Below are positions 40,401-51,145 of a DNA stretch of 64,000 nt, piece after piece. Origin of the DNA: Phycisphaerae bacterium (GTDB lineage: Bacteria; Planctomycetota; Phycisphaerae; Phycisphaerales; SM1A02); NCBI GenBank assembly GCA_002711415.1, contig PARI01000032.1:146861-210860 (forward strand). The letters are read 5' to 3'. A program made the position numbers and the translations under genes. The notes beneath the pieces are model-generated. The model was not told the DNA's origin. It worked only from the letters and a program-made list of their open reading frames with translations, and did not search any database. Each line of letters begins with the position of its first letter. The stretch's first letter is position 1.

Positions 40401-41592
40401 CCTGGAACCCCGCTGGGCGGTTCCCCTGGAGGACACGGATCCACTGATCCTGGATTCGGATCGGTTCATCACGATCCAGGAGGAAGGGGGCAGCGGGATC
40501 GCAATTTCTCGACTGGATCCTGCTGATGGAACCCAGGTATGGCGAACACCTGAACTCTCGGAGTATTTTCCAGGAGACCGGCTGGAGGCATTCGGACGAA
40601 TCGCGGAGATACCGCTTCCTGGCGGAGCGCCGCTGGTGCTCGACGAGATCATCTCGATGGTCCGGGACGATCACCTCTGGTTGACCCGGCGAAACGGGGA
40701 TGTTGCGATGTTCGACATGGCCGGTTCCAGGCAGGCCCAGTGGGTGCGAAGTGAGTTGATCGATCATGTCCACTTCGTCGAGGGTAACGAACTTGGCATC
40801 GTCATCGCCGGCACCGATGTCACGCGGTTCTCAGGCATGCCCAACACGATCAACCCCAGGATCATCGTCCTGGATCCCCTGACAGGGGATACGATCATCG
40901 ACCATCACCCGGAACTGGAAGGCGACCTCCAGTGGCTGGCGATCTCACCGATGGGGATGCTCGCACTGGGCTCGAGTGGTGGTGTCGAGACCATTGGCAT
41001 GGCCCGATCCGGTGGTGGTCCGGGGCCGCTTCTCTGGCGGAGTGCATCCAGGCCCTACCGGGATCTCGCCAGCGGCTGGTTCTGGGGGCTGGACCTGCAG
41101 ATGGCCGATGCCGATGGGGCCGTCACGACGGCACGGGCCTCAGATGGAGTCCTGGTCCGGGATCGCTACAAGCAGCCTGGCGAAGGCCTCTCGACCTCGG
41201 GTCCGCTTCGGACCGTGCGTATCGACAACCAGGGGCTTCTGCTTCACTTCAAGGGTCGTGTGCTTGATTTCGGTCCACGGGGCCGGCTGCAGGGGACCGA
41301 TGCGGTCGCCACGAGCCCGAACTACACGTTGATGCTCCCTGCAGGGGAACAGATCATCCTGCTCTCGGCACTGGGAAGTCGACAGATCCGTCTCCAGGAC
41401 CGGCTGGGACACAGGACCATCTTCGAGTACCGAGTTCACCAGTTGGATCGGAGCCGGGGCTGCAAGCTCCTCGGCCCGGATCTCCAGCTTCAGTCACCCG
41501 TGCGAATCGGGCGGGGGGCCGTCGTCAACGGTTGGCTGCTCCTGGGATCCGATGCCGGGACCACCGCGGTTCCACTTCCTCCAGGAACATGA
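37447..41592 (+). CDS. Very large exported PQQ-type beta-propeller protein
   Basis: An N-terminal signal (about 1-30, ending 'VPLMGQ') precedes a helical, TPR-like region (about 45-210) and two blocks of PQQ/BamB-like blades. Blade cores include 'VITALDRINQRVAWQRV', 'TILCLDARDGQSLWQTHLD' and 'ALACINASDGVIRWLHRF' in the first block (about 300-520) and 'AISRLDPADGTQVWRTPEL' in the second (about 950-1100). A helical region lies between them. The 1381 residues far exceed BamB. ATG 37450 has better spacing to GGAGG than the first ATG. It may be a periplasmic scaffold or surface protein; association with the secretion locus nearby is only positional. Confidence 0.72.
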   Translation: MMNRHSRFPDLVLLSMLLASLIASPVPLMGQDESPVVVDDSPWAWQLLQQVHGHKQGNATEAARLCQRLLDEYGPRLVPRDTGGSDDLVSVRANVMELLLENEELLRTYRRMNRSAASRLMDQGRHHEVVQRYYLTRYGLEALLRITQDHVDSGRFDNALACVLLLDRHPDLDGRRRAHALHMEAISRLGRGEPIDTIRNELGRLDSEESAHLLEHIAMMEACEWPPGPGTSISSLVASGSASLPKDDDGWHRIWSRPLESTLYRRIFYRDESSTPFSPRTVQKALEDASIMTTVPVVTDSTVYINEGHVITALDRINQRVAWQRVFEPTRLDRDGGRVGDLNDIVIHGDRLLTMTGHAGSQARSGGGTILCLDARDGQSLWQTHLDRLDGRDEFEGLFCYGTPVVVDDRVCFLARKVNNRLETVVYAIGLDLQTGELEWDTLVCSCGGVRLSGMRPFSSLRADEGHLYLSSSVGALACINASDGVIRWLHRFPVPIRESRFAVEPWEISSPLMTSRGVLAITPDQSEIVLVEPNSGDILERYPTGLGTNWQMPRYLVQFDLPRPDGMTAETVLAVGHDVSAFDVHHLEKPLWTFSRNNPERIRQLVGGDQRSGIRGRVQPAGGYVVVPGTDGLLIVDSSNGMILQSVDVDEPCNPVLDGFQLLLAGQNQLLSLMPLEEAERLMRSRIDQSPQDPEQALALLQLGLNAGDGSLCLEAAELGIDSIELMGPTDHESVLRGELLQLLLRVDDASLCSQRRSGDHLHSIISAVATQPSQHVLAQLARSAWLERTDRIDEAVMVLQELLSNRDRSTSLIANPDGRIVPASKLALLRLNEIIDVHGSVVTSPLDTQDSVEASVEIAGIMEQEGRSREALLALVRSSWDSTIDHVHTCKALPLQHAGAMATRNQWLDLASELQEHALAIGTELSGQTMSNGTEAVNTPMLGQEPGAVRELDVMLARTLVDDPGEGVLVVSRNELVMLEEADLEPRWAVPLEDTDPLILDSDRFITIQEEGGSGIAISRLDPADGTQVWRTPELSEYFPGDRLEAFGRIAEIPLPGGAPLVLDEIISMVRDDHLWLTRRNGDVAMFDMAGSRQAQWVRSELIDHVHFVEGNELGIVIAGTDVTRFSGMPNTINPRIIVLDPLTGDTIIDHHPELEGDLQWLAISPMGMLALGSSGGVETIGMARSGGGPGPLLWRSASRPYRDLASGWFWGLDLQMADADGAVTTARASDGVLVRDRYKQPGEGLSTSGPLRTVRIDNQGLLLHFKGRVLDFGPRGRLQGTDAVATSPNYTLMLPAGEQIILLSALGSRQIRLQDRLGHRTIFEYRVHQLDRSRGCKLLGPDLQLQSPVRIGRGAVVNGWLLLGSDAGTTAVPLPPGT

Positions 41593-41689
41593 CGGAACCA
41601 ACTTTTTCCCGCGAGGACTTGATCCCCGGAAGCATATTGGATACATATTCGCGCTGAGAGGGTTTTCATTTTTCCAAGCAGGAGGTTCC

Positions 41690-42028
41690 ATGTCGATCAT
41701 CATAGAACCGGACTTGATTCTCGATCCCGGGTCCCAGTGGCAGGTCTGGACCGGTCCAGTCATGACATGGGACGAGGGGTCTGACGATGACTATTCCTTC
41801 TATGACGATGAGGAATCGGAAGAGGATGAATTCGACGAGCTCGATGCCGATGAAGACGACGATGATGATGACGAGGAACGCATCGATGATGAAGACGATG
41901 AAGATGAGAAGTTCATCATCGAAGACGAAGACGACGAGGATGATGATGACGACATCTTTGGTGGCGATGACGAGGATGACGACGAGGATGACGAAGACAT
42001 CGACGACGACGAGGACGATGAGTTCTGA
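41690..42028 (+). CDS. Extremely acidic small protein of unknown function
   Basis: The 112-residue product begins with a neutral 27-residue segment ('MSIIIEPDLILDPG' then two Trp) and continues as an almost uninterrupted Asp/Glu tract: 63 of residues 28-112 are acidic, interspersed with single hydrophobics such as F48, I65, F75-I77, I89-F90 and F112. AGGAGG precedes ATG 41690 by four bases, a strong ribosome binding site that argues for translation. The tract could bind calcium, basic proteins or mimic nucleic acid. It ends directly against the stop of the convergent lipoprotein gene. I recognise no family. Confidence 0.7.
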   Translation: MSIIIEPDLILDPGSQWQVWTGPVMTWDEGSDDDYSFYDDEESEEDEFDELDADEDDDDDDEERIDDEDDEDEKFIIEDEDDEDDDDDIFGGDDEDDDEDDEDIDDDEDDEF

Positions 42029-43285
42029 TCAATCCTCCCCGGGTTCCTCACGCACACGGTCCACCCAGAGCCCCGACAGCATGAGCTGATCATCGTCAGC
42101 CCTTGCAAGCAGGATGTTCCAGGCGTTCTCTTGTCCGCCCCTGTCAGCCGGGTAGGGTATCGACGTTTCTTCGAGCAGTTCGATGCGAGCCTGATCCTCC
42201 CGGACCTCGGACTGCAGCGGCATCAGGTAGACCCCGGTCCGAGTGGCGACGATATAGCTGTCCTTCTCCAGGCGACAGGCCGCGATTGATCCGTTCAGCA
42301 GTTCCCAGTTGACCTGCACCGAGGGATTCCAGAGCGACATCCGCCTTCGACTTGGACTGAAGTAGCAGAGCGTGCTTCCGGAATCGGGCTGAACGGCGGT
42401 TCCGGTCCCGACCGAGAGCATCATCTGCCACGCTGTTCGAGGCGTGGCCCTCACCGAGACCGACAACTGGCGCTTGCCCTGGTCGAACGTGTCACTGTTG
42501 ATCGTGGGGCCGTGGACCAGATGGAGTCTGCCATCGAGGAACGACGCCACGAACACGCCTTGCCCGTTCTCGGAGAAGACCGGAAGCATCCATGACCGCT
42601 CGGGGTCATCCTGCCAGGACCATTCCCCGTGTTCGTTTCGTACCCGGAGTTCGAAGTGCTCGCGGTCGATCTCCCGTGTCGACCAGGCGAACTGGCCGCC
42701 CGGACCGATGACACCGAATGCGTTGACGCGGTCATCATCGACGATCCAGTCGACCTGGCCGGTCTTCCAATCGGCCATGCCGATCCACCGCGAACCATTC
42801 TCAAGCGGCATTTCCACGAGAAACCCCTCATCTGTCGCACTGCGGCCCAGTACGTGTCCGCCGGGAAGCGTGTGGATCAGTTCGTACCCGCTCGGTGCCA
42901 GTCGCCAGACCTGGATCCGGGTCGCCATCGGTGGTCTGGCACCGTCCCCGGCCAGAACATCATCCCATCGTGGCCGGTACCCCGTCGACGTCGCGATATG
43001 CGTGGCTGCGGGTGATGCCAATGGCAGCGTGAAACCATCGAACGGGATCGAGCCCAGCGCCGTGATGGACATGCGTGCCTGGTTGGTGGTGATCATCCTG
43101 GAGACGGGGGGGGAGCCGTCGTTTCCGGCCGAGATCTTCCTGGCGTGTTCGGGTTGCGGATCGTCCAGGATGACCTTCCGCGACACGACCGAGGTCCTGT
43201 CCGTCACGCAGCCGCCGGCGCACGCCATGGCAAGGACTGCCAGAAGTGCACGTTGCCTGATTCGAGCATCAAGCCACATGGTCAT
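42029..43285 (-). CDS. Predicted lipoprotein with beta-propeller-like repeats
   Basis: A signal with a possible lipobox ending 'ACAGGC' (Cys about residue 26) precedes about 390 residues of WD/PQQ-like beta repeats, e.g. 'WIGMADWKTGQVDWIV', 'VFVASFLDGRLHLVHGP' and 'LLNGSIAACRLEKDSYIVATRTG'. No enzymatic motif is seen. The start overlaps the stop of the secretin gene (ATGA), making it the last cistron of the set 3 secretion operon, where a secretin pilotin would be expected. A pilotin role is conceivable but the fold looks different from known pilotins. An ATG at 43279 is also possible. Confidence 0.68.
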   Translation of the reverse strand: MTMWLDARIRQRALLAVLAMACAGGCVTDRTSVVSRKVILDDPQPEHARKISAGNDGSPPVSRMITTNQARMSITALGSIPFDGFTLPLASPAATHIATSTGYRPRWDDVLAGDGARPPMATRIQVWRLAPSGYELIHTLPGGHVLGRSATDEGFLVEMPLENGSRWIGMADWKTGQVDWIVDDDRVNAFGVIGPGGQFAWSTREIDREHFELRVRNEHGEWSWQDDPERSWMLPVFSENGQGVFVASFLDGRLHLVHGPTINSDTFDQGKRQLSVSVRATPRTAWQMMLSVGTGTAVQPDSGSTLCYFSPSRRRMSLWNPSVQVNWELLNGSIAACRLEKDSYIVATRTGVYLMPLQSEVREDQARIELLEETSIPYPADRGGQENAWNILLARADDDQLMLSGLWVDRVREEPGED

Positions 43286-45933
43286 TCGCTGGCTGAAGCG
43301 GACGGTTCTCCCTCGTCGTCGTCAGCTGATTCATCGGCTTCCGGCTTCTTCGAGTCATCGTCGTTCTCGTAGAGCCTTCCATGCTCAGGAGAGCCGTGTT
43401 CCGGGATCAACGGGACGCCGTCGTTTGAGAACGGCTCGCTTGCGATCGGGTTCTTGACGACATCCTTCAGCGGCTGGGACAGCGCTTCGAGCCTCTCTCG
43501 CTCGAGCACGTTGAAGTTGCTGTCGTTGTCATCAGGGTTGTCCACGATCGTCGGGGTGATGAAGATCAGTAGTTCCTCGGTCACATCGGCCTTGTCCGTC
43601 GAGGTGAAGAGTGCTCCAACGAGCGGAATGTCGCCGAGCAGTGGAACCTTGTTGGTCGTTTCGGATTCCGTCTGGGTCCTGATGCCGGAGATCACGATGG
43701 TCTGGTTGTCCTGGACCGTGATCGACGTCGTGGTCTTCCTCGTGTCGATGATGCCCTGGCCATTGAACGTCTTCAGACTCGTGTTGGAGAGGATCACCTC
43801 GATGTCCATCGCGACGTTCTGGTCATCCGTGATCCTCGGCCTGACGTTGAGCCCGATGCCGACGGCCTTCTGCTCAAAGCTCCTGTTGGTCGATCCACTC
43901 TCCGTGGTCTGGCTTCCGGTCTCGATTGAGACTTCCTCACCATTGAAGAAGAGTGCTTCCTTGTTGTCCGACGTGAAGACGCGTGGCTGCTGGAGGATCC
44001 GGACGTTGGTCTCCTTGTCCAGAGCCTGCAGGATGAAACTTGGTGTCCCTTGGAGCCCGAAGTCACCCTGGGCATTGAAGAACGAGCTGCCGATCCCGGT
44101 CTTCTGGAAGTTAAAGTTGATCGATCCGCCGATTGAATTGTTCGAGTCCCTGGTCGTGACGTCCGAACCTACCTTCAGCCCGAACAGGAGATCATCGTTC
44201 AACTCGACCGTTGCAATGACGGCACTGATCATCACCTGGCGGCCCGGCATGTCCAGTTCGGCGATGATCTCGAGGATCGCCTCCTGGATCTCGGGGGTCG
44301 CCAGCACGAGGAGGCTGTTCTGATTGGCATTGGGCACGACGCGGGACTTGCCGACGATGGCGCTGACTTCCGTCGCCTCGTCTCCGCCCGAGCCTCGGCC
44401 CTGCCAGGGGAAGCTGATCTCGTCGCCCTGATTGTCTCCTGCTTCGTCGTTGCCGCCCGAGGTGAGCGTGGTCACGTCGATGCCGGTGAGGCCCTCTCCC
44501 GGTGCTTCAAGTGTGACGTTGGAGCCTGCAGCGCCGAGCAGCACGTTGAGCACCTCGGCCACCTCGAATGCGCTGGCATGCTTCAGGGGCACGTTGACCG
44601 GGAGGCCGACTTCCAGTGGCTGGTCGATCTTCTTGATCATCTGGTCGAGCCAGTCGAAGTTGTCCGGGGTCTTGCTGATCACGATCAGGCGGTTTGAATC
44701 CGGGTAGGCTTCGATCCTGAAGATGTTCGCGACGGTGACATCGGCACCGGCACCGCCTGCGGCGTTTCCGCCCCGCGACACGCCGCCCCTGCTGGAACTG
44801 CTGGAGGCGCCTCCGCTGGAGGATTCGAGCAATGCCTGGAGCGTGTCCCTCACCTTGATCGGATCGGTGTACTTGAGGTCGTAGAGCCTGAATATGTCGC
44901 CTTCACGAGTCGGCGGGATGTCCCAGGCCGTCTTGATCAGCAGGGCGATCTCCGCCATGATCTCCGGCTCGGCTCGGACGGTCAGCGAGTTCGTCTGGGG
45001 CAGGACCGTGACCATCAACTGGTCGCTCGTACCGACGATCTCGGGGACGCCGGTCTGGGTGCGATTCTGCGGCCGTTGCGTCTGGCCTCGCTGGCTTTGT
45101 GCCCGGTTGGATGAGCTGGAACGCGAGGAGGAGCTTGTCGACCTGCTCGAGGTGAACAGGCTCTCGATGACCTCGGCGACCGTGTTCGCGTCCGCGTAGG
45201 CGAGCCTGAACGTCTGGGTCTCGACATCGACATACGCAGGCACATCGAGGATGTCGATGAGACTCTGGATCCGCTTGGCAAGACCGATGTCGCCCTGCAG
45301 CACGAGCTGGTTCGAGTTGATGTCCTCGGTGAGACTCGCGTAGCTGGGAACTGAACTGTTGAGCTGTTCGAAGATGTCGTTGACCTTCGTGTTCTGGATC
45401 TTGAACACCTTGATCACGAAGGCACCATCCTCCTTCGCGTTGCGCACGTCATCATCGGGGCCGAGAATGACCGCAGGCTGGGCCTCGCTGATCGTCTCGA
45501 GGCTGTCCAGCAGGATCAGGTCGTCGGTCTCGATGACGCCCACCGAGTTGAGCCTGAAGGCCTGGAAGAGCAGGTCAACGGCTTCACGCTTGGTGACGGC
45601 CTTGTCACTGATGATCGTGATCTTCTGTGGGGCGATCGTGGTCATCTTCACGATCACCGCCTTGCCGGTCCACTGGACGATGAACGGGATGAAGTCCTCG
45701 ATCTTCTTGTCCTTGAAGGCGATCTGGACCAGTTCATCATCGTCGGCGCCATCAGCAATTCCTACGGCGCCGCCCTCTGAGGTCGCTGCTTCCTCTGGCT
45801 GTTCGGCCGGAGCCTGTCGATCATCCTGAAGCAACGCTTCCTGTGAATCGGCCGGCTGGCTCGCAGGAACAGCGGTCGGTTGTTCCTGTGCTGTCGGAGC
45901 ATCCTGTCGTGGCTGGGAGGCTGGACGTTGCAC
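43282..45933 (-). CDS. gspD: Type II secretion secretin (GspD), main part
   Basis: The protein contains an N0 domain ('VQIAFKDKKIEDFIPFIVQW'), N1-N3 repeats with Ser/Gly-rich linkers, and the secretin core with 'VPLLGDIPLVGALF'. It would form the outer-membrane ring that exported proteins cross. A long acidic Ser-rich tail follows. The GTG at 45933 gives no signal peptide, although secretins need Sec export. The reading frame stays open upstream, and a frame with a good signal peptide ends twelve bases before it, so the real N-terminus is probably the neighbouring ORF joined by a -1 shift at the C-run (45987-45994). The following lipoprotein gene overlaps by four bases. Confidence 0.9.
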   Translation of the reverse strand: MQRPASQPRQDAPTAQEQPTAVPASQPADSQEALLQDDRQAPAEQPEEAATSEGGAVGIADGADDDELVQIAFKDKKIEDFIPFIVQWTGKAVIVKMTTIAPQKITIISDKAVTKREAVDLLFQAFRLNSVGVIETDDLILLDSLETISEAQPAVILGPDDDVRNAKEDGAFVIKVFKIQNTKVNDIFEQLNSSVPSYASLTEDINSNQLVLQGDIGLAKRIQSLIDILDVPAYVDVETQTFRLAYADANTVAEVIESLFTSSRSTSSSSRSSSSNRAQSQRGQTQRPQNRTQTGVPEIVGTSDQLMVTVLPQTNSLTVRAEPEIMAEIALLIKTAWDIPPTREGDIFRLYDLKYTDPIKVRDTLQALLESSSGGASSSSSRGGVSRGGNAAGGAGADVTVANIFRIEAYPDSNRLIVISKTPDNFDWLDQMIKKIDQPLEVGLPVNVPLKHASAFEVAEVLNVLLGAAGSNVTLEAPGEGLTGIDVTTLTSGGNDEAGDNQGDEISFPWQGRGSGGDEATEVSAIVGKSRVVPNANQNSLLVLATPEIQEAILEIIAELDMPGRQVMISAVIATVELNDDLLFGLKVGSDVTTRDSNNSIGGSINFNFQKTGIGSSFFNAQGDFGLQGTPSFILQALDKETNVRILQQPRVFTSDNKEALFFNGEEVSIETGSQTTESGSTNRSFEQKAVGIGLNVRPRITDDQNVAMDIEVILSNTSLKTFNGQGIIDTRKTTTSITVQDNQTIVISGIRTQTESETTNKVPLLGDIPLVGALFTSTDKADVTEELLIFITPTIVDNPDDNDSNFNVLERERLEALSQPLKDVVKNPIASEPFSNDGVPLIPEHGSPEHGRLYENDDDSKKPEADESADDDEGEPSASASE

Positions 45934-45944
45934 GTTGCTGCCAC

Positions 45945-46241
45945 TCAGGCTGGGACCGGTGGGGTCCTCTCCGGGGGTGCGGCCAAGGGGGGGGTCGGCT
46001 TCTCGTCCTCGTCTTCCTCGTCTTCCTCGTCTGTCGCCTTGGTGGCCTCGCTGGGCTGGGGTGCAGGATCCTGCCTCTGGTTGGAGTCAGGCTGCGGAGA
46101 CGGTGCGGGTCGGTCGCCGGAATCGGCCAGGAGCCAATCGCTGGCGGTGACCATGGTGCCAAGCATCAGGAGCAATGTCAGCGTGAATACGATGCATCGT
46201 TTCGGTCGTCCCATGACTGATCTGGTGCTCCGTATATTCAT
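45945..46241 (-). CDS. Signal-peptide-bearing N-terminal part of the secretin gene, out of frame
   Basis: This short frame encodes a Sec signal peptide ('CIVFTLTLLLMLGTMVTAS') followed by a Pro/Gln-rich and acidic linker ('DEEDEEDEDEKPTPP') and then stops. It lies just upstream of gspD in another frame. A -1 shift at the eight-C run would continue it into 'LGRTPGEDPTGPSLSGSN' and the secretin, giving a normal exported protein. It could be a sequencing error, a phase-variable switch or programmed frameshifting. Alternatively it is an independent small exported protein, which I consider less likely. ATG 46214, right at the signal, is an alternative start; 46259 (GTG) is a third. Confidence 0.7.
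   Translation of the reverse strand: MNIRSTRSVMGRPKRCIVFTLTLLLMLGTMVTASDWLLADSGDRPAPSPQPDSNQRQDPAPQPSEATKATDEEDEEDEDEKPTPPLAAPPERTPPVPA
45987..45994 (-). other. Eight-base homopolymer at the frame break of the secretin gene
   Basis: Eight G on the plus strand (eight C in the mRNA sense) between the signal-peptide frame and the GspD frame. One extra base here would join the two. Such runs are prone to both sequencing errors and replication slippage. Confidence 0.8.
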
Positions 46242-46331
46242 GGCTGTAATGAACTCCACTGTACTCTGGTCTCTCTGGAATTGTCCAACGTGCGGGTTTT
46301 GAGGCTATTTCACGCTTTCATGCTGAAACGA

Positions 46332-47201
46332 TCAGCGTGACTGGCGGATCTTCTCCAGCAACTTGCTGAATTCCTCGGCCAGCCGCTTCCTGGTCTGGCT
46401 GTCGATGTCTGATCGCTGTCGGGCCCGACTGACCGCGGAGAGCATCTGCTGCGCCTCCTGGCGTGTCATGGCCTGGATGTCCCCATCCGTCAGGGGTTCG
46501 GGAATCTCGGCATTCCCATAGGAGCCTGGTTGTCGAGGAACGCTCGGCGTGCTCGCTGGCTGGACCGGGGCCGAAGGAGTCGATGGAGGCGTGTAGGACG
46601 AACTGCTCGAGGTGGATCCGCTGAAGACGCTGCCGGCGTTGTTGCTGGCGAAGATACCTCCGTCGAACAGTCCCTGTGCATCGTTTCCGAAGACGGATAC
46701 CTCGTACTCACCGCCCTTGTGGCCGAGGGTGACAGTCCAGGGTGCATTGATGTTGATGATACGGACCCCGAGGATCTCGTCACCCACGCCACCGCTGTTC
46801 CCATTGTTGAAGAAGACCTTGTCGGCAAAGATCCCGTCAACGGGTGGCCCCGTGTACATCGCCGGTGGCGGTGGAGGTGGAGGCGGTGGTGGAGGCGTGT
46901 ACTCGATCGGATCAGGTTCGGGTGGTGGGGGTGGCGGAGGTCTTCTCGGCGGCTTGGGCGCGAAGAACACCGATCGCCCGTTGAACCGGTCGAGATTCGT
47001 CTGGACCATCGCCACGTGCTGTTGCAGCAGGGGGTCTGATCGGCTCTGGCCTGCGTCACGTGTCGAGGGCGCGATCATCGAGCCGAAGAGTGTCGGCACG
47101 GAGTACAGGACGAAAACGACGACGATGATGCATGCAAGCATGCTGACCACGAGTGGCCCTGACCAACGTACGCCTGATGGGAGCTTGATCCGGTTATCCA
47201 T
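46332..47201 (-). CDS. GspC/PilP-like inner-membrane protein with polyproline linker
   Basis: A single transmembrane helix (about 16-38) is followed by a proline-rich periplasmic linker (about 80-118, runs of up to eleven Pro), then a homology-region (HR)-like domain with 'VGDEILGVRIININAPWTVT' that would contact the secretin. The last 56 residues ('PEPLTDGDIQAMTRQEAQ' onward) form a helical module that is also found at the end of the GspL-like protein. ATG 47201 has GCGAGG seven bases upstream. Placed after the GspM-like gene and before the secretin, it occupies the PilP position of a pilMNOPQ order; GspC/PilP assignment is by domain order, not strong similarity. Confidence 0.7.
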   Translation of the reverse strand: MDNRIKLPSGVRWSGPLVVSMLACIIVVVFVLYSVPTLFGSMIAPSTRDAGQSRSDPLLQQHVAMVQTNLDRFNGRSVFFAPKPPRRPPPPPPPEPDPIEYTPPPPPPPPPPPAMYTGPPVDGIFADKVFFNNGNSGGVGDEILGVRIININAPWTVTLGHKGGEYEVSVFGNDAQGLFDGGIFASNNAGSVFSGSTSSSSSYTPPSTPSAPVQPASTPSVPRQPGSYGNAEIPEPLTDGDIQAMTRQEAQQMLSAVSRARQRSDIDSQTRKRLAEEFSKLLEKIRQSR

Positions 47202-47204
47202 GCT

Positions 47205-47813
47205 TCAGCCTCGCCGTCCCGCGTTCAACGGGGACATGATCCATGCCTCGACCGTCATCTTGACGGTCACCCTGGTCATTCGTTCCATCCTGGTGATGCG
47301 AAGCGAGGAGATTGATTCGATCTCCGGGTTGCTCTCGATCTCCGAGATGATCTTCAGTGCCTCTTCAGGCGACGCGTCGAACTGGAGCCTGCCGGTCACC
47401 TTCTCGATCCGGCCGCCCGTGCTCGAGGTGATGCTTGTGAGTGCATCCGAGGGAAGCTTGGCGCCTCCGAAATTGTCGTAGCTGTCGTTGTATATCTTGT
47501 GGTCCTTCAGGATGGAGTTGATCGTCCTGCTCAGCTTCTTCGCGCCGTCGGCCTCGGTGCTGGGAATGTTGACTGGTCCAACAGCCCTGATCGTCGCCTC
47601 CATTCGCGGGGAGAACTCGGCTTCCTTGCTGGCACCTTCGTGAAGGATCTCAGCGTACCGGTCGGCGCTCTGGTTCCACTGTCGGGCCACCGCCCAGAGG
47701 TACTCGTCGGCAAGCAGGAACAGCACCATGACGGCCAGGACGGCGATGCTGCCCTGGTAGACCGGTGACAGGCCCCTGTACTTCTCCCATGTTTGCTCCA
47801 CTCGATCGCTCAT
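47205..47813 (-). CDS. GspM/PilO-like inner-membrane assembly protein
   Basis: The 202-residue protein has a short cytoplasmic N-terminus, one membrane helix ('YQGSIAVLAVMVLFLLADEY', about 19-38), a coiled region and a ferredoxin-like C-terminal domain ('GRLQFDASPEEALKIISEIE', 'RMTRVTVKMTVEAWIM'), the plan of GspM and PilO. It would stabilise the GspL homologue at the inner membrane. The start ATG overlaps the gspL-like stop by four bases and its own stop lies three bases before the gspC-like start, so the three are tightly coupled. Confidence 0.78.
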   Translation of the reverse strand: MSDRVEQTWEKYRGLSPVYQGSIAVLAVMVLFLLADEYLWAVARQWNQSADRYAEILHEGASKEAEFSPRMEATIRAVGPVNIPSTEADGAKKLSRTINSILKDHKIYNDSYDNFGGAKLPSDALTSITSSTGGRIEKVTGRLQFDASPEEALKIISEIESNPEIESISSLRITRMERMTRVTVKMTVEAWIMSPLNAGRRG

Positions 47814-49729
47814 CCTGCCTCCTTCACCCGATCAAGCAGGAGCCTGAACTGATTCTTGAGCTGCTCGTTCGCCTGTTCATCCAGGCCCGGGAGTTGCCTT
47901 GCTTCGGCGATCCGTGCCAGTGCCTCCTGGGCTTCAGTCTTCGTGAGTGCACTGATCTGCTCCGGTGTTAGCAGTTCAGGCAGTGAGTCGCTCGGGTTCG
48001 TGGTTGTCCGGTCCGGGCCACCGCCTCGCTTGGCGAGACCGGAACTGCCCGAACCCCTCCGGGAGAGATTTCTTCGATCTCGAGTGGATTCCTCCTCGTT
48101 CTCCTCGTCGATCGTCGTCTCATCCTCGGTCGTTTCGGTTGTTGCGACCATCTCGGTCGCAGGGTTCTCCGACTCCTCCTCCTCAGCAGCAGGTTCAATC
48201 TCGGCCGTCGCATCGGCGACCACTTCACTCTGCTCCTCCGCCTCGGATTCTTCTTCTTCGGGCTCTTCCTGCTTTCCGTACCGTCGCTCAGACAGGGTCA
48301 ATGCACCGAAGTCCTGCTCCTCGGGATACCTGAAGACGTACGTTGGTCGGGCGATCTCCGCTGTCAACGTGAACTCGTAATCACCGCGAGCGTTGGGCTT
48401 GTCCCAGCTTGGCGTGACTCGTTCGAAGATCCTGCTCTCGTACATCTGCGACTGCATCAGCCCGATGCGTTCCGTGGCGATCATCCCGTCATGCTTCTTC
48501 GCCAGCCCGTGCAGCGTGATCCGCTCGCCGTGGTTGATGACGATCTGATCCAGGTCGATCCCCTCGGGCGTTGTGCAGGCGATGTCGGCCAGCAGCTTGG
48601 TCATAGGCCACGATCGCTGTTCGAGCTCATCATACATCTCCAACTGCTTGTCCAAGTCCTCGAGCTTCAACTCGTATGCCTGGCGATCCGGCAGCTTGAC
48701 CTTCAGGATTCCAAGGCGTGCCAGCGCGATCGCAGCCGGCCCGAAGCCGATGACCAGGATCGCCGCGATCAGGATTCCGATGGCTATTCTCGGTTCGGAC
48801 ATGCGTTCGGCGGTGTTGGCGATCAGCCCCTGGTCCTTGCTTGGGGGATCGATCCTCAACGCCATCAGCGGCTCCATCGGTCCGGCCGCTGCCAGTACAA
48901 CGCCCAGGTGCAGACCCCACTCCTGGAACCACTGTGCATCTGCCGGCAGTCCCTTCACGTGATCTGCCAGAGCGTTCCTGACCTGATCCGAAAGCACCAG
49001 TTGCGGTCCGTTGGTGCCCTGGAGCGAGGACTCGATCCAATCGACCTGTCTCTTGACCTCGTCCTCGGGCACGTTTGCATTGAAGGCCGACTCGGCGAAC
49101 GCCCGTCCGACGCAGGCCCCCCAGGGCTCGCCAGGAGCGGCCTCGACGAGCGTGTTCCTGATGATCAAGCCCTTGCTTGATCGGTAGACCAGTGAGATTG
49201 TTCCATCGTCACTGTTGGTCCAGATCAACGGGGCATCAGTTCCGCCTTCGCCGCACAACCCGAGCAGTCCGGTGAGAATCGGCGTGTAGCCGACCTGTTC
49301 ATCCAGTTCCAGAGGCTTGATGCTTCGTTCAAGGGGCCATGCCATGATGACCCCCGTTGCACCGGAGCCTTGTGAGTCCGAGGTGCTGGCCATCACGGTT
49401 CTGTGCTTGGGAATCCCCCCGAGGATGTGGGTTTCGGCCTGCAGGCTCAATGCGGCCTGAACCTGCTCCTTCCCGGCATCCGGGAGGGGGCAGAGCCTGC
49501 TGATCACTGTCGTGGAGGGCAGCATCTCGACGACGTGGGCTGCCTGGGCATCCTGGATCAGCGATTCCAGGCCTTCCAGGTCGCTCACATCGGTCATGGT
49601 CGCCAATTCGACCATGGATCCATCGATTCTGGCGACCATGGCCTTCCAGCCTGTCTTATCGGGCTTCAGGATCGCCCAGCAGGCCTGATCCACTGTCTGC
49701 TTCTGCCTGTTGTTGCTCTTTCTCGGCAT
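47810..49729 (-). CDS. GspL-like protein (PilM-PilN type fusion) with acidic linker and shared C-terminal module
   Basis: The N-terminal ~290 residues fit an actin-like/GspL cytoplasmic domain ('LLGLCGEGGTDAPLIWTNSD'), one transmembrane helix lies at about 315-338, and a PilN-like periplasmic part follows to about 480. A disordered, Glu-rich linker (about 490-575) and a helical C-terminal module beginning 'PELLTPEQISALTKTEAQ' complete the 639 residues. The module resembles the C-terminus of the GspC-like protein two genes away. In known systems GspL recruits the ATPase GspE to the membrane. The start at 49729 is six bases from the gspK stop. Confidence 0.78.
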   Translation of the reverse strand: MPRKSNNRQKQTVDQACWAILKPDKTGWKAMVARIDGSMVELATMTDVSDLEGLESLIQDAQAAHVVEMLPSTTVISRLCPLPDAGKEQVQAALSLQAETHILGGIPKHRTVMASTSDSQGSGATGVIMAWPLERSIKPLELDEQVGYTPILTGLLGLCGEGGTDAPLIWTNSDDGTISLVYRSSKGLIIRNTLVEAAPGEPWGACVGRAFAESAFNANVPEDEVKRQVDWIESSLQGTNGPQLVLSDQVRNALADHVKGLPADAQWFQEWGLHLGVVLAAAGPMEPLMALRIDPPSKDQGLIANTAERMSEPRIAIGILIAAILVIGFGPAAIALARLGILKVKLPDRQAYELKLEDLDKQLEMYDELEQRSWPMTKLLADIACTTPEGIDLDQIVINHGERITLHGLAKKHDGMIATERIGLMQSQMYESRIFERVTPSWDKPNARGDYEFTLTAEIARPTYVFRYPEEQDFGALTLSERRYGKQEEPEEEESEAEEQSEVVADATAEIEPAAEEEESENPATEMVATTETTEDETTIDEENEEESTRDRRNLSRRGSGSSGLAKRGGGPDRTTTNPSDSLPELLTPEQISALTKTEAQEALARIAEARQLPGLDEQANEQLKNQFRLLLDRVKEAG

Positions 49730-49735
49730 CTTCGA

Positions 49736-51145
49736 TTACTGCTCCCTGTACGCCAGGATCTTCACTGGGAGAGTAGAACGATCAACTACCACGACCATTT
49801 CAACCTCTGTACCGGTGGAAAACGCTCTTCCCTTGCTTGAAATCGTGAAAACGTTGCTGATCACATCAAGTTTCGCTCCCATTGAGGCCAGCATTCCAGC
49901 TTCCATCCCGCTGACCTCCAGCAGGTCAACGAGGCTGGTGATCCCTCCGAGGCGGTTCTCCCTCAGGGCGATGATTCCATTGACCAGGTCTGGCTCGAAC
50001 CCCACCAGATCCTCAAGGACGGCTGCGGAGGCGGTATTGACGTTCACCTTGCCGGGGCTCCGTTGCTCGAGCGTGGCCAGTGTGCTCTCCTGGAAGATCA
50101 GCCTCAGCTGATCATCCGTCAATGGGGATGGCTCCTGCTGGCTCTGGCCGCTGGTTCCCGCCGAGCTTCTCATGCTGTTGCCCAGTGCCGTACCCGAGGA
50201 TGAATTACCCGTGTCCGCCAGGTCCGCCAGGTCCACGATCAGGAGTGATGCCAGCTGAGCGTTGTCCTGTCCGGCGAAGTTGGACAGCGCGGCAGCCTGG
50301 GCCTCGTCGACATCGAGTCGACCCATCATCTCCTGTGACGTCGCCTCTTTCAGGTTCAGCCTCGGCAGACCGGACATCCCCATCCCGCCATCAATCGAGT
50401 AGGTCGTGAGCATGGCCGCCCAGCCTTCCTGAAGGATCCCATCCGGGTCGTCCGGGGGCCATGTCGTGTTGCCATCGTCTTCGTTCGGATCGAGCCGGTT
50501 GTTGAAGTTCCAATCCTCTCCACGGACGAACTCCGGCCAGGCCCCGGCAACGAGCTCGACCTCCGCGATGCTGCGGAACGGAGCATTTCGGGGCGTATAG
50601 CCATGGCTCCTGTTGATGTAGTACTCCTCTTCCGCACCCATGCCCTCGACCTCGTCATTCTCATCCATCCAGTCGATGATCGAGTCGGCGACATCGGCCG
50701 TCATGTCAGGAAGATTCAGCAGTTCCATCGATGACAGCAGGTTGATGTTCGCCTTGCCATGCTCATCCATGGGGCCGGCCCATTCCTGTCCGTCGGTGTA
50801 GTGCCTGATGTCCCAGCTTCCGGTCAACACCTCGCCGACCGAGTAGTTCTCCAGTTCGTCCACCATCTGCATGGGGTTTTCCGGTTCCGGGTTTTCCGTG
50901 TAGTACCCCATGATCGCTATCATCTGTTCAACGCCTGCACGCGCCGCCCACCGGGCCTGTACCTGGGCGAGTTGTTCTCGACCGATGGTCGCCTGGCGGA
51001 ACGAGATCACCTGCAAGGCAGCGGTGATCACGGCCGCGATGGCAAGGGACCAGATCACCACGACGATCGTCGAGCCCTTCGACGGCCTACGGTGATCTGT
51101 TGTTATCCTGCCTGTCTCCACTCGTGTCGCCTTGCCTGGGGTCAT
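49736..51145 (-). CDS. gspK: Type II secretion minor pseudopilin GspK
   Basis: The N-terminal membrane helix 'GSTIVVVIWSLAIAAVITAA' lacks the +5 Glu, as GspK does, because it caps the pseudopilus. The body contains 'HGKANINLLSSMELLNLPDM' and a helix-hairpin-helix-like motif 'KVNVNTASAAVLEDLVGFEP' with 'IIALRENRLGGITSLVDLLE', the hallmark alpha domain of GspK. 469 residues is somewhat long. A possible calcium site 'NNRLDPNEDDGN' lies near residue 218. ATG 51145 follows three bases after the gspJ stop region. It forms the tip complex with GspI and GspJ encoded just upstream. Confidence 0.9.
   Translation of the reverse strand: MTPGKATRVETGRITTDHRRPSKGSTIVVVIWSLAIAAVITAALQVISFRQATIGREQLAQVQARWAARAGVEQMIAIMGYYTENPEPENPMQMVDELENYSVGEVLTGSWDIRHYTDGQEWAGPMDEHGKANINLLSSMELLNLPDMTADVADSIIDWMDENDEVEGMGAEEEYYINRSHGYTPRNAPFRSIAEVELVAGAWPEFVRGEDWNFNNRLDPNEDDGNTTWPPDDPDGILQEGWAAMLTTYSIDGGMGMSGLPRLNLKEATSQEMMGRLDVDEAQAAALSNFAGQDNAQLASLLIVDLADLADTGNSSSGTALGNSMRSSAGTSGQSQQEPSPLTDDQLRLIFQESTLATLEQRSPGKVNVNTASAAVLEDLVGFEPDLVNGIIALRENRLGGITSLVDLLEVSGMEAGMLASMGAKLDVISNVFTISSKGRAFSTGTEVEMVVVVDRSTLPVKILAYREQ

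What the first reader, a model, noticed from the sequence alone, without database searches (positions are those of the whole stretch)
46332..49729. Same C-terminal helical module on the GspL-like and GspC-like proteins
The last ~55 residues of the GspL-like protein ('PELLTPEQISALTKTEAQ' onward, ending 'LLLDRVKEAG') and of the GspC-like protein ('PEPLTDGDIQAMTRQEAQ' onward, ending 'LLEKIRQSR') align without large gaps: P-E-x-L-T, I, then T, E-A-Q, a run of L/A and A-R at matching positions. Both sit after disordered linkers and would be periplasmic. Standard GspL, GspC, PilN and PilP proteins are not known to end this way. A shared docking domain for a common partner (secretin, peptidoglycan or an unknown periplasmic protein) is a reasonable hypothesis.
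Basis: partly seen in the sequence, partly recalled or inferred. Interest (0 to 1): 0.78.

Follow-up and report, generated by a model that had tools for sequence, protein, structure and literature searches.

The report
Shared tail domain on secretion-system proteins
Two membrane proteins of a planctomycete type II secretion machine end in copies of the same small three-helix domain, which every relative keeps on one of them and which has repeatedly been copied onto other envelope proteins, so it probably acts as a plug that docks proteins at this machine; the docking itself is not yet tested.

Summary
The last ~53 residues of the GspL-like and GspC-like proteins are homologous: 20 of 56 residues identical without gaps, BLASTP 2e-12, 0 of 20,000 shuffles as good. 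No Pfam, NCBIfam or PDB sequence family covers them. AlphaFold predicts a three-helix mini-domain. All 59 recognisable GspL proteins of this operon type carry it. GspC carries it in 30 of 57 loci, explained by one change on an operon tree. It is more constrained than the adjacent linker. It is not confined to GspL and GspC: about 25 other proteins carry it, nearly all with a signal peptide or TM segment, including small secreted STN-like proteins, TM Ser/Thr kinases, DUF1579 proteins with two copies, a lipoprotein and one secretin. Most of these copies resemble their own genome's or genus's GspL tail. I found it convincingly only in this planctomycete order, and in no tested genome lacking this GspL. 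The best reading is a mobile periplasmic docking domain centred on the T2SS platform. The partner is unknown and binding is untested.

The parts
47813..47980 (-). C-terminal module of the GspL-like protein (residues 584-639)
   Evidence: BLASTP and shuffles against the GspC tail; profile score 64.9; AlphaFold three helices, mean pLDDT 85
46335..46502 (-). C-terminal module of the GspC-like protein (residues 234-289)
   Evidence: profile score 71.9; same three helices 239-244, 247-261, 268-287 in the GspC model
47810..49729 (-). gspL-like gene, 639 aa
   Evidence: Operon position K-L-M-C-D in 59 loci; 13 of 28 family members hit PilN, 2 hit T2SSL; the window copy itself has no Pfam hit at 0.1
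46332..47201 (-). gspC-like gene, 289 aa: TM helix 15-39, beta domain 121-169, linker, module
   Evidence: Model; best Foldseek match is Dickeya GspB 4wfw, prob 0.92, E 0.54, TMt 0.47: weak; identity rests mainly on synteny
47981..48322 (-). GspL acidic, Ser/Arg-rich linker before the module (about residues 470-583, boundary approximate)
   Evidence: Sequence; pN/pS of the 70 residues before the module 0.55 against 0.40 for the tail
46503..46688 (-). GspC Ser/Pro-rich linker (about residues 172-233)
   Evidence: pLDDT below 50 at 172-205 and 210-230; pN/pS 0.61
47205..47813 (-). gspM-like gene between gspL and gspC, no module
43282..45933 (-). gspD secretin ORF, no module
   Evidence: Pfam Secretin 5e-44, Secretin_N 3.3e-34, N0 1.7e-6; TIGR02517 346 bits, just under its 351-bit cut-off
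49736..51145 (-). gspK-like gene, no module
   Evidence: T2SSK_1st 2.1e-11; NF037980 3.8e-21, under its cut-off

Best explanation
The tail is a small, mobile, periplasmic three-helix docking domain of about 53 residues, carried on a flexible linker. It arose on GspL in the ancestor of several families of one planctomycete order and is an integral part of that GspL. It was later copied once onto GspC and repeatedly, lineage by lineage, onto other exported or membrane proteins. [quoted passage not shown] Shown: homology, recurrence, C-terminal position, exported carriers, co-occurrence with this GspL, constraint, a single change on GspC, repeated similarity to the own GspL. Predicted: the fold. 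Inferred: that it binds protein, that the site is the T2SS platform, and the partner. Given docking, I put about 40% on tail-to-tail pairing and 60% on a third protein.
For: Homology and significance. All 59 GspL found carry it. One change on the operon tree accounts for its presence on GspC, 30 with and 27 without, and every scored descendant keeps it. Tails pN/pS 0.40 against 0.55-0.61 in the adjacent linkers; tail more conserved than linker in 10 of 13 GspL and 10 of 10 GspC pairs. A hydrophobic export or TM segment precedes the module in 24 of 26 other carriers; the other two ORFs are truncated. 15 of 17 modules outside the DUF1579 group rank in the top 3 of 60 for similarity to their own GspL tail. 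An STN-like protein in G075 has a tail 85% identical to its own GspL tail, while proteins at the matching site in other genera carry tails nearer to their own GspL. Module-negative genomes give no intact tailed GspL. Compact predicted fold on a disordered tether. XpsC, XpsL and XpsM form one complex in Xanthomonas (PMC11981180).
Against: No interaction data and no complex prediction could be run. GspC tails do not track their own GspL tail (median rank about 24 of 60), so no pairwise co-evolution is visible there. Similarity of the other copies to the own GspL may reflect only recent copying. The other carriers are not encoded in the T2SS operon and have diverse functions. GspC in about half of the loci does without the module.
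Confidence: 0.6

Rival explanations
1. [quoted passage not shown]
For: OutB's 28-residue C-terminal extension follows an HR domain and cross-links to peptidoglycan (PMC9239104). All carriers are extracytoplasmic or membrane proteins.
Against: A chemical ligand common to bacteria gives no reason for restriction to genomes with this GspL or to one order, nor for donors being the own GspL. No similarity to a known wall-binding domain.
Confidence: 0.12
2. Secretion tag: exported carriers are T2SS substrates recognised through the module, and the GspL and GspC copies are part of the recognition site.
For: C-terminal position; several carriers are soluble exported proteins (redoxin, beta-lactamase family, STN-like, DUF1579). 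Module found only with this T2SS.
Against: Carriers include TM kinases, TM proteins and a lipoprotein that are unlikely to be secreted. Most genomes, including the window's, have no or few non-Gsp copies, so most substrates cannot depend on it.
Confidence: 0.1
3. Structural cap or neutral hitch-hiker: a stable helical end that protects disordered tails and spreads by recombination from gspL without a binding role.
For: The conserved positions look like helix caps and core, with no invariant residue across the 49-row alignment. Carrier functions are diverse.
Against: Retention on all 59 GspL and on all scored descendants of the GspC gain, constraint above the linker, almost exclusive presence on exported carriers, and donors that look like the own GspL.
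Confidence: 0.1
4. Convergence: short amphipathic helical tails with similar composition, not homologous.
For: Short, helical, E/A/R/L-rich.
Against: Ungapped 36% identity with 0 of 20,000 composition-preserving shuffles as good; the two-row profile retrieves both tails in many genomes; an 85% identical pair exists between unrelated proteins of one genome.
Confidence: 0.02

Closest known systems
T2SS GspL / T4P PilM-PilN family
   Same: Operon place, PilN-like periplasmic domain in many members
   Different: No Pfam or NCBIfam model covers the tail; distant GspL-like proteins of G031 and PilN paralogues in the own genome end without it
T2SS GspC and GspB/OutB (HR-domain proteins)
   Same: TM helix, periplasmic beta domain, then a C-terminal extension; weak fold match to GspB. 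OutB's extension anchors to peptidoglycan (PMC9239104)
   Different: The extension here is a folded 53-residue domain shared with GspL and unrelated proteins; OutB's is a 28-residue polyampholyte peptide
GspC C-terminal PDZ or coiled-coil regions (from general knowledge)
   Same: C-terminal periplasmic add-on of GspC, variable between lineages
   Different: Predicted three-helix domain, no Pfam PDZ match
Mobile C-terminal modules such as dockerins or T9SS C-terminal domains (from general knowledge)
   Same: Works-like comparison only: one small domain attached to many exported proteins
   Different: No sequence match; here the same domain is also part of the secretion machine itself
Ribosomal protein uL29
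   Same: Best structural resemblance: Z up to 8.0, rmsd 1.2-2.1 over 52-56 residues
   Different: Profile comparison with uL29 of the same genomes gives no relation (probability 2.5%); likely a common helical arrangement only

Membership tests
T2SS GspL | Place in a gspK-L-M-C-D operon | tested here: met
   59 loci
T2SS GspL | PilN-like / GspL periplasmic domain | tested here: inconclusive
   13 of 28 family members hit PilN (best 3.5e-7) and 2 hit T2SSL, the window copy none at 0.1; solved GspL chains are top biological hits only at E 0.3
T2SS GspC | Single TM followed by an HR domain | tested here: inconclusive
   TM and a 6-strand beta domain predicted; best Foldseek match is GspB HR at E 0.54; no Pfam hit
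T2SS GspC | Binds GspD N0 through HR | not testable with these tools
   needs a binding assay or complex prediction
T2SS system | GspD secretin with N0, N1 and secretin domains | tested here: met
   Pfam matches over the cut-offs; TIGR02517 slightly under its cut-off
Any described Pfam domain (for the tail) | Match over the curated cut-off | tested here: not met
   only scattered hits with E of 0.005 or worse
Ribosomal uL29 | Sequence profile relation | tested here: not met
   hhalign probability 2.5%, P 0.018 over 21 columns
Peptidoglycan anchor | Binds or cross-links to peptidoglycan | not testable with these tools
   needs sacculus binding or DTSSP cross-linking
Protein docking domain | Direct protein partner | not testable with these tools

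The most novel reading that the evidence does not exclude
The T2SS platform of this order is a periplasmic hub with its own address tag. The GspL tail defines a lineage-specific docking code, and unrelated envelope proteins, including TM Ser/Thr kinases and small secreted STN-like proteins, are recruited to the machine by acquiring a copy of their own GspL tail.
Probability: 0.3. Interest if true: 0.82.

Novelty: new variant of a known kind. Interest (0 to 1): 0.62.

Why it matters
T2SS assembly platforms are poorly understood, and no transferable docking domain shared by GspL and GspC is known to me. Here one small undescribed domain marks every GspL of an order's T2SS, was added to GspC once and kept, and appears independently on other envelope proteins. 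That is a natural, repeated experiment on which proteins join the platform, a ready bait for finding T2SS partners in planctomycetes, and a small portable tag to test for targeting.

Tried and rejected
Pfam and NCBIfam on the window proteins and Pfam on 49 module members: no domain. uL29 ancestry, suggested by the fold hits: not supported by profile comparison, and the Z values are in the range of common helical arrangements. GspL-GspC homogenisation: rejected, GspC tails do not track their own GspL. Secretin N0/N1 identity of the STN-like carriers: only suggestive; hhalign against GspD N0-N1 is not convincing and Pfam gives a weak Secretin_N hit in one, so they are called STN-like by pattern. 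Hits in L092 (internal), L093 and L123/L124 treated as false positives. Two partial hits outside the order at E up to 1e-3 among 392 genomes are what chance gives. The module tree has 53 columns and resolves little. The genome-contig scan gave only two loci. Literature searches found nothing on this tail (open-licence papers only).

Full report
What was claimed.

Is it there? Yes. The GspL-like protein (window 47810-49729, -) ends in residues 584-639 and the GspC-like protein (46332-47201, -) in residues 234-289. They align without gaps: 20 of 56 identical, BLASTP 2e-12, 0 of 20,000 shuffles as good, Gumbel P about 1e-9. Codons have diverged (5 of 20 shared residues keep the codon), so the duplication is old. 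Searches of the own genome find only these two clear copies. A lenient scan finds a third, diverged copy at the end of a secreted STN-like protein on contig C17; its tail beats 20,000 shuffles.

What are the carriers? The operon is K-L-M-C-D. GspD and GspK are recognised by Pfam and NCBIfam. GspL is recognised across its family through PilN and T2SSL, though not in the window copy itself. GspC is identified by position, a TM helix and a beta domain whose best fold hit is Dickeya GspB, weakly. In both, the module follows a low-complexity linker and lies on the periplasmic side of a single TM segment (inference from topology).

What is the module? Iterated profiles converge on about 53 residues with consensus PxPLTxxxIxAMxxxEAxxALxxVxxARxxxxLDxxTxxRLxxEFxxLxxRxR. 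The GspC model shows the same three helices. Fold search returns mainly uL29 ribosomal hairpins at Z of 8 or less, within the range of common helical arrangements, and profile comparison gives no relation to uL29.

Does it recur? In 400 genomes of the order, 190 match the two-row profile. With a 49-row profile, 47 of 48 and 52 of 52 genomes of the same family match, as do 33 of 45 from other families of the order. Class and phylum samples give no convincing hit outside the order. Every GspL of this type found in the fetched loci (59 of 59) has it. Of 16 module-negative genomes tested for this GspL, 14 give no match, one (G289) only a contig-edge fragment, and G031 two distant GspL-like proteins of 496-497 aa that end without the module. 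The PilN paralogues in the window's own genome also lack it.

History on GspC. On a GspK+GspD+GspM tree of 59 loci, presence of the GspC tail (30) and absence (27) needs exactly one change, with SH-aLRT 100. The outgroup families and the basal family member lack it, so the simplest reading is one gain on GspC, kept by all scored descendants. This counts L057, where the tail lies in a shifted frame, and L074, where it is divergent, as present; L069 and L113 were left unscored. GspC proteins without the module mostly end in acidic or Pro-rich low-complexity tails.

Constraint. In pairs of related loci the tail is more conserved than the 70 residues before it in 10 of 13 GspL pairs and 10 of 10 GspC pairs. 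Pooled pN/pS is 0.40 for both tails, against 0.55 and 0.61 for the linkers and 0.46 and 0.52 for the cores. Many dS values are saturated, so these ratios are rough.

Other carriers. About 25 further proteins bear it, nearly always at the C-terminus: STN-like small secreted proteins (L080, L082, L083, L085, L117; near the N-terminus in L119, L121), Ser/Thr kinases with one TM segment and TPRs (L081, L086, L118), a TlpA-like redoxin (L064; L079 looks like a fragment of another), DUF1579 proteins with two tandem copies (L047, L077, L078, L089, L090), YfbK-like VWA proteins (L050; internal in L091), a beta-lactamase-family protein (L084), a lipoprotein that is little more than linker plus module (L087), small TM proteins (L052, L058), a WD40 protein (L056), an unknown exported protein (L122) and a secretin (L099). 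DUF1579 was confirmed by Pfam in L089 and assigned to the others by similarity. A hydrophobic segment precedes the module in 24 of 26; the other two ORFs are truncated.

Where do the extra copies come from? Fifteen of 17 modules outside the DUF1579 group have their own GspL tail among the three best of 60; GspC tails (median rank about 24) and DUF1579 modules do not. The clearest case is an STN-like protein beside mutS. In G075 its tail is 85% identical to G075's GspL tail; at the matching site in G279 and G084 the tails are 42-45% identical to their own GspL and only 20-27% to the G075 one. A second genome of G075's genus has the STN-like protein without the module. Copying from, or homogenisation with, the own GspL has therefore happened more than once.

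How it probably works. A folded mini-domain on a flexible tether, under selection, on exported proteins, in genomes with this T2SS, and repeatedly copied from GspL, fits a docking domain at the T2SS inner-membrane platform. XpsC, XpsL and XpsM form one complex in Xanthomonas (PMC11981180), so tail-to-tail pairing is possible; a common third protein is equally compatible. OutB/GspB offers a working analogue of a short C-terminal extension that anchors the machine, there to peptidoglycan (PMC9239104). A wall anchor, a secretion tag and a neutral cap are less well supported, for the reasons given under the rivals.

Limits.

Noticed in passing
window 45945-46259 and 45987-45994: The signal-peptide start of GspD lies in a different frame from the rest of the secretin; the shift is best placed at a run of eight G (C on the coding strand). 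It may be an assembly error or a variable tract.
   Followed up: partly
L053 4900-5508; L076 9647-10273: Both sampled genomes of genus g20 have a second, shorter GspC-like gene without the module between gspC and gspD.
   Followed up: no
L080, L083, L085, L117: STN-like secreted proteins sit convergent to mutS, and in three of the four beside a gene that looks like the obg GTPase; other genera have homologues ending in long coiled-coil-like tails instead of the module.
   Followed up: partly
L047, L077, L078, L089, L090: DUF1579-like exported proteins of genera g10 and g14 carry two tandem modules that form an older lineage than the other extra copies.
   Followed up: partly
L057 6174-6704: In G217 the GspC tail is found in a frame different from the GspC body, so the gene appears frame-shifted there.
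   Followed up: no
window 41552-42028: An ORF of 158 aa with an extremely acidic, D/E-only C-terminal half lies convergent to the gene at 42029-43285.
   Followed up: no
L099 3264-5852: In one genome of another family (G089) the secretin GspD itself ends in the module.
   Followed up: partly
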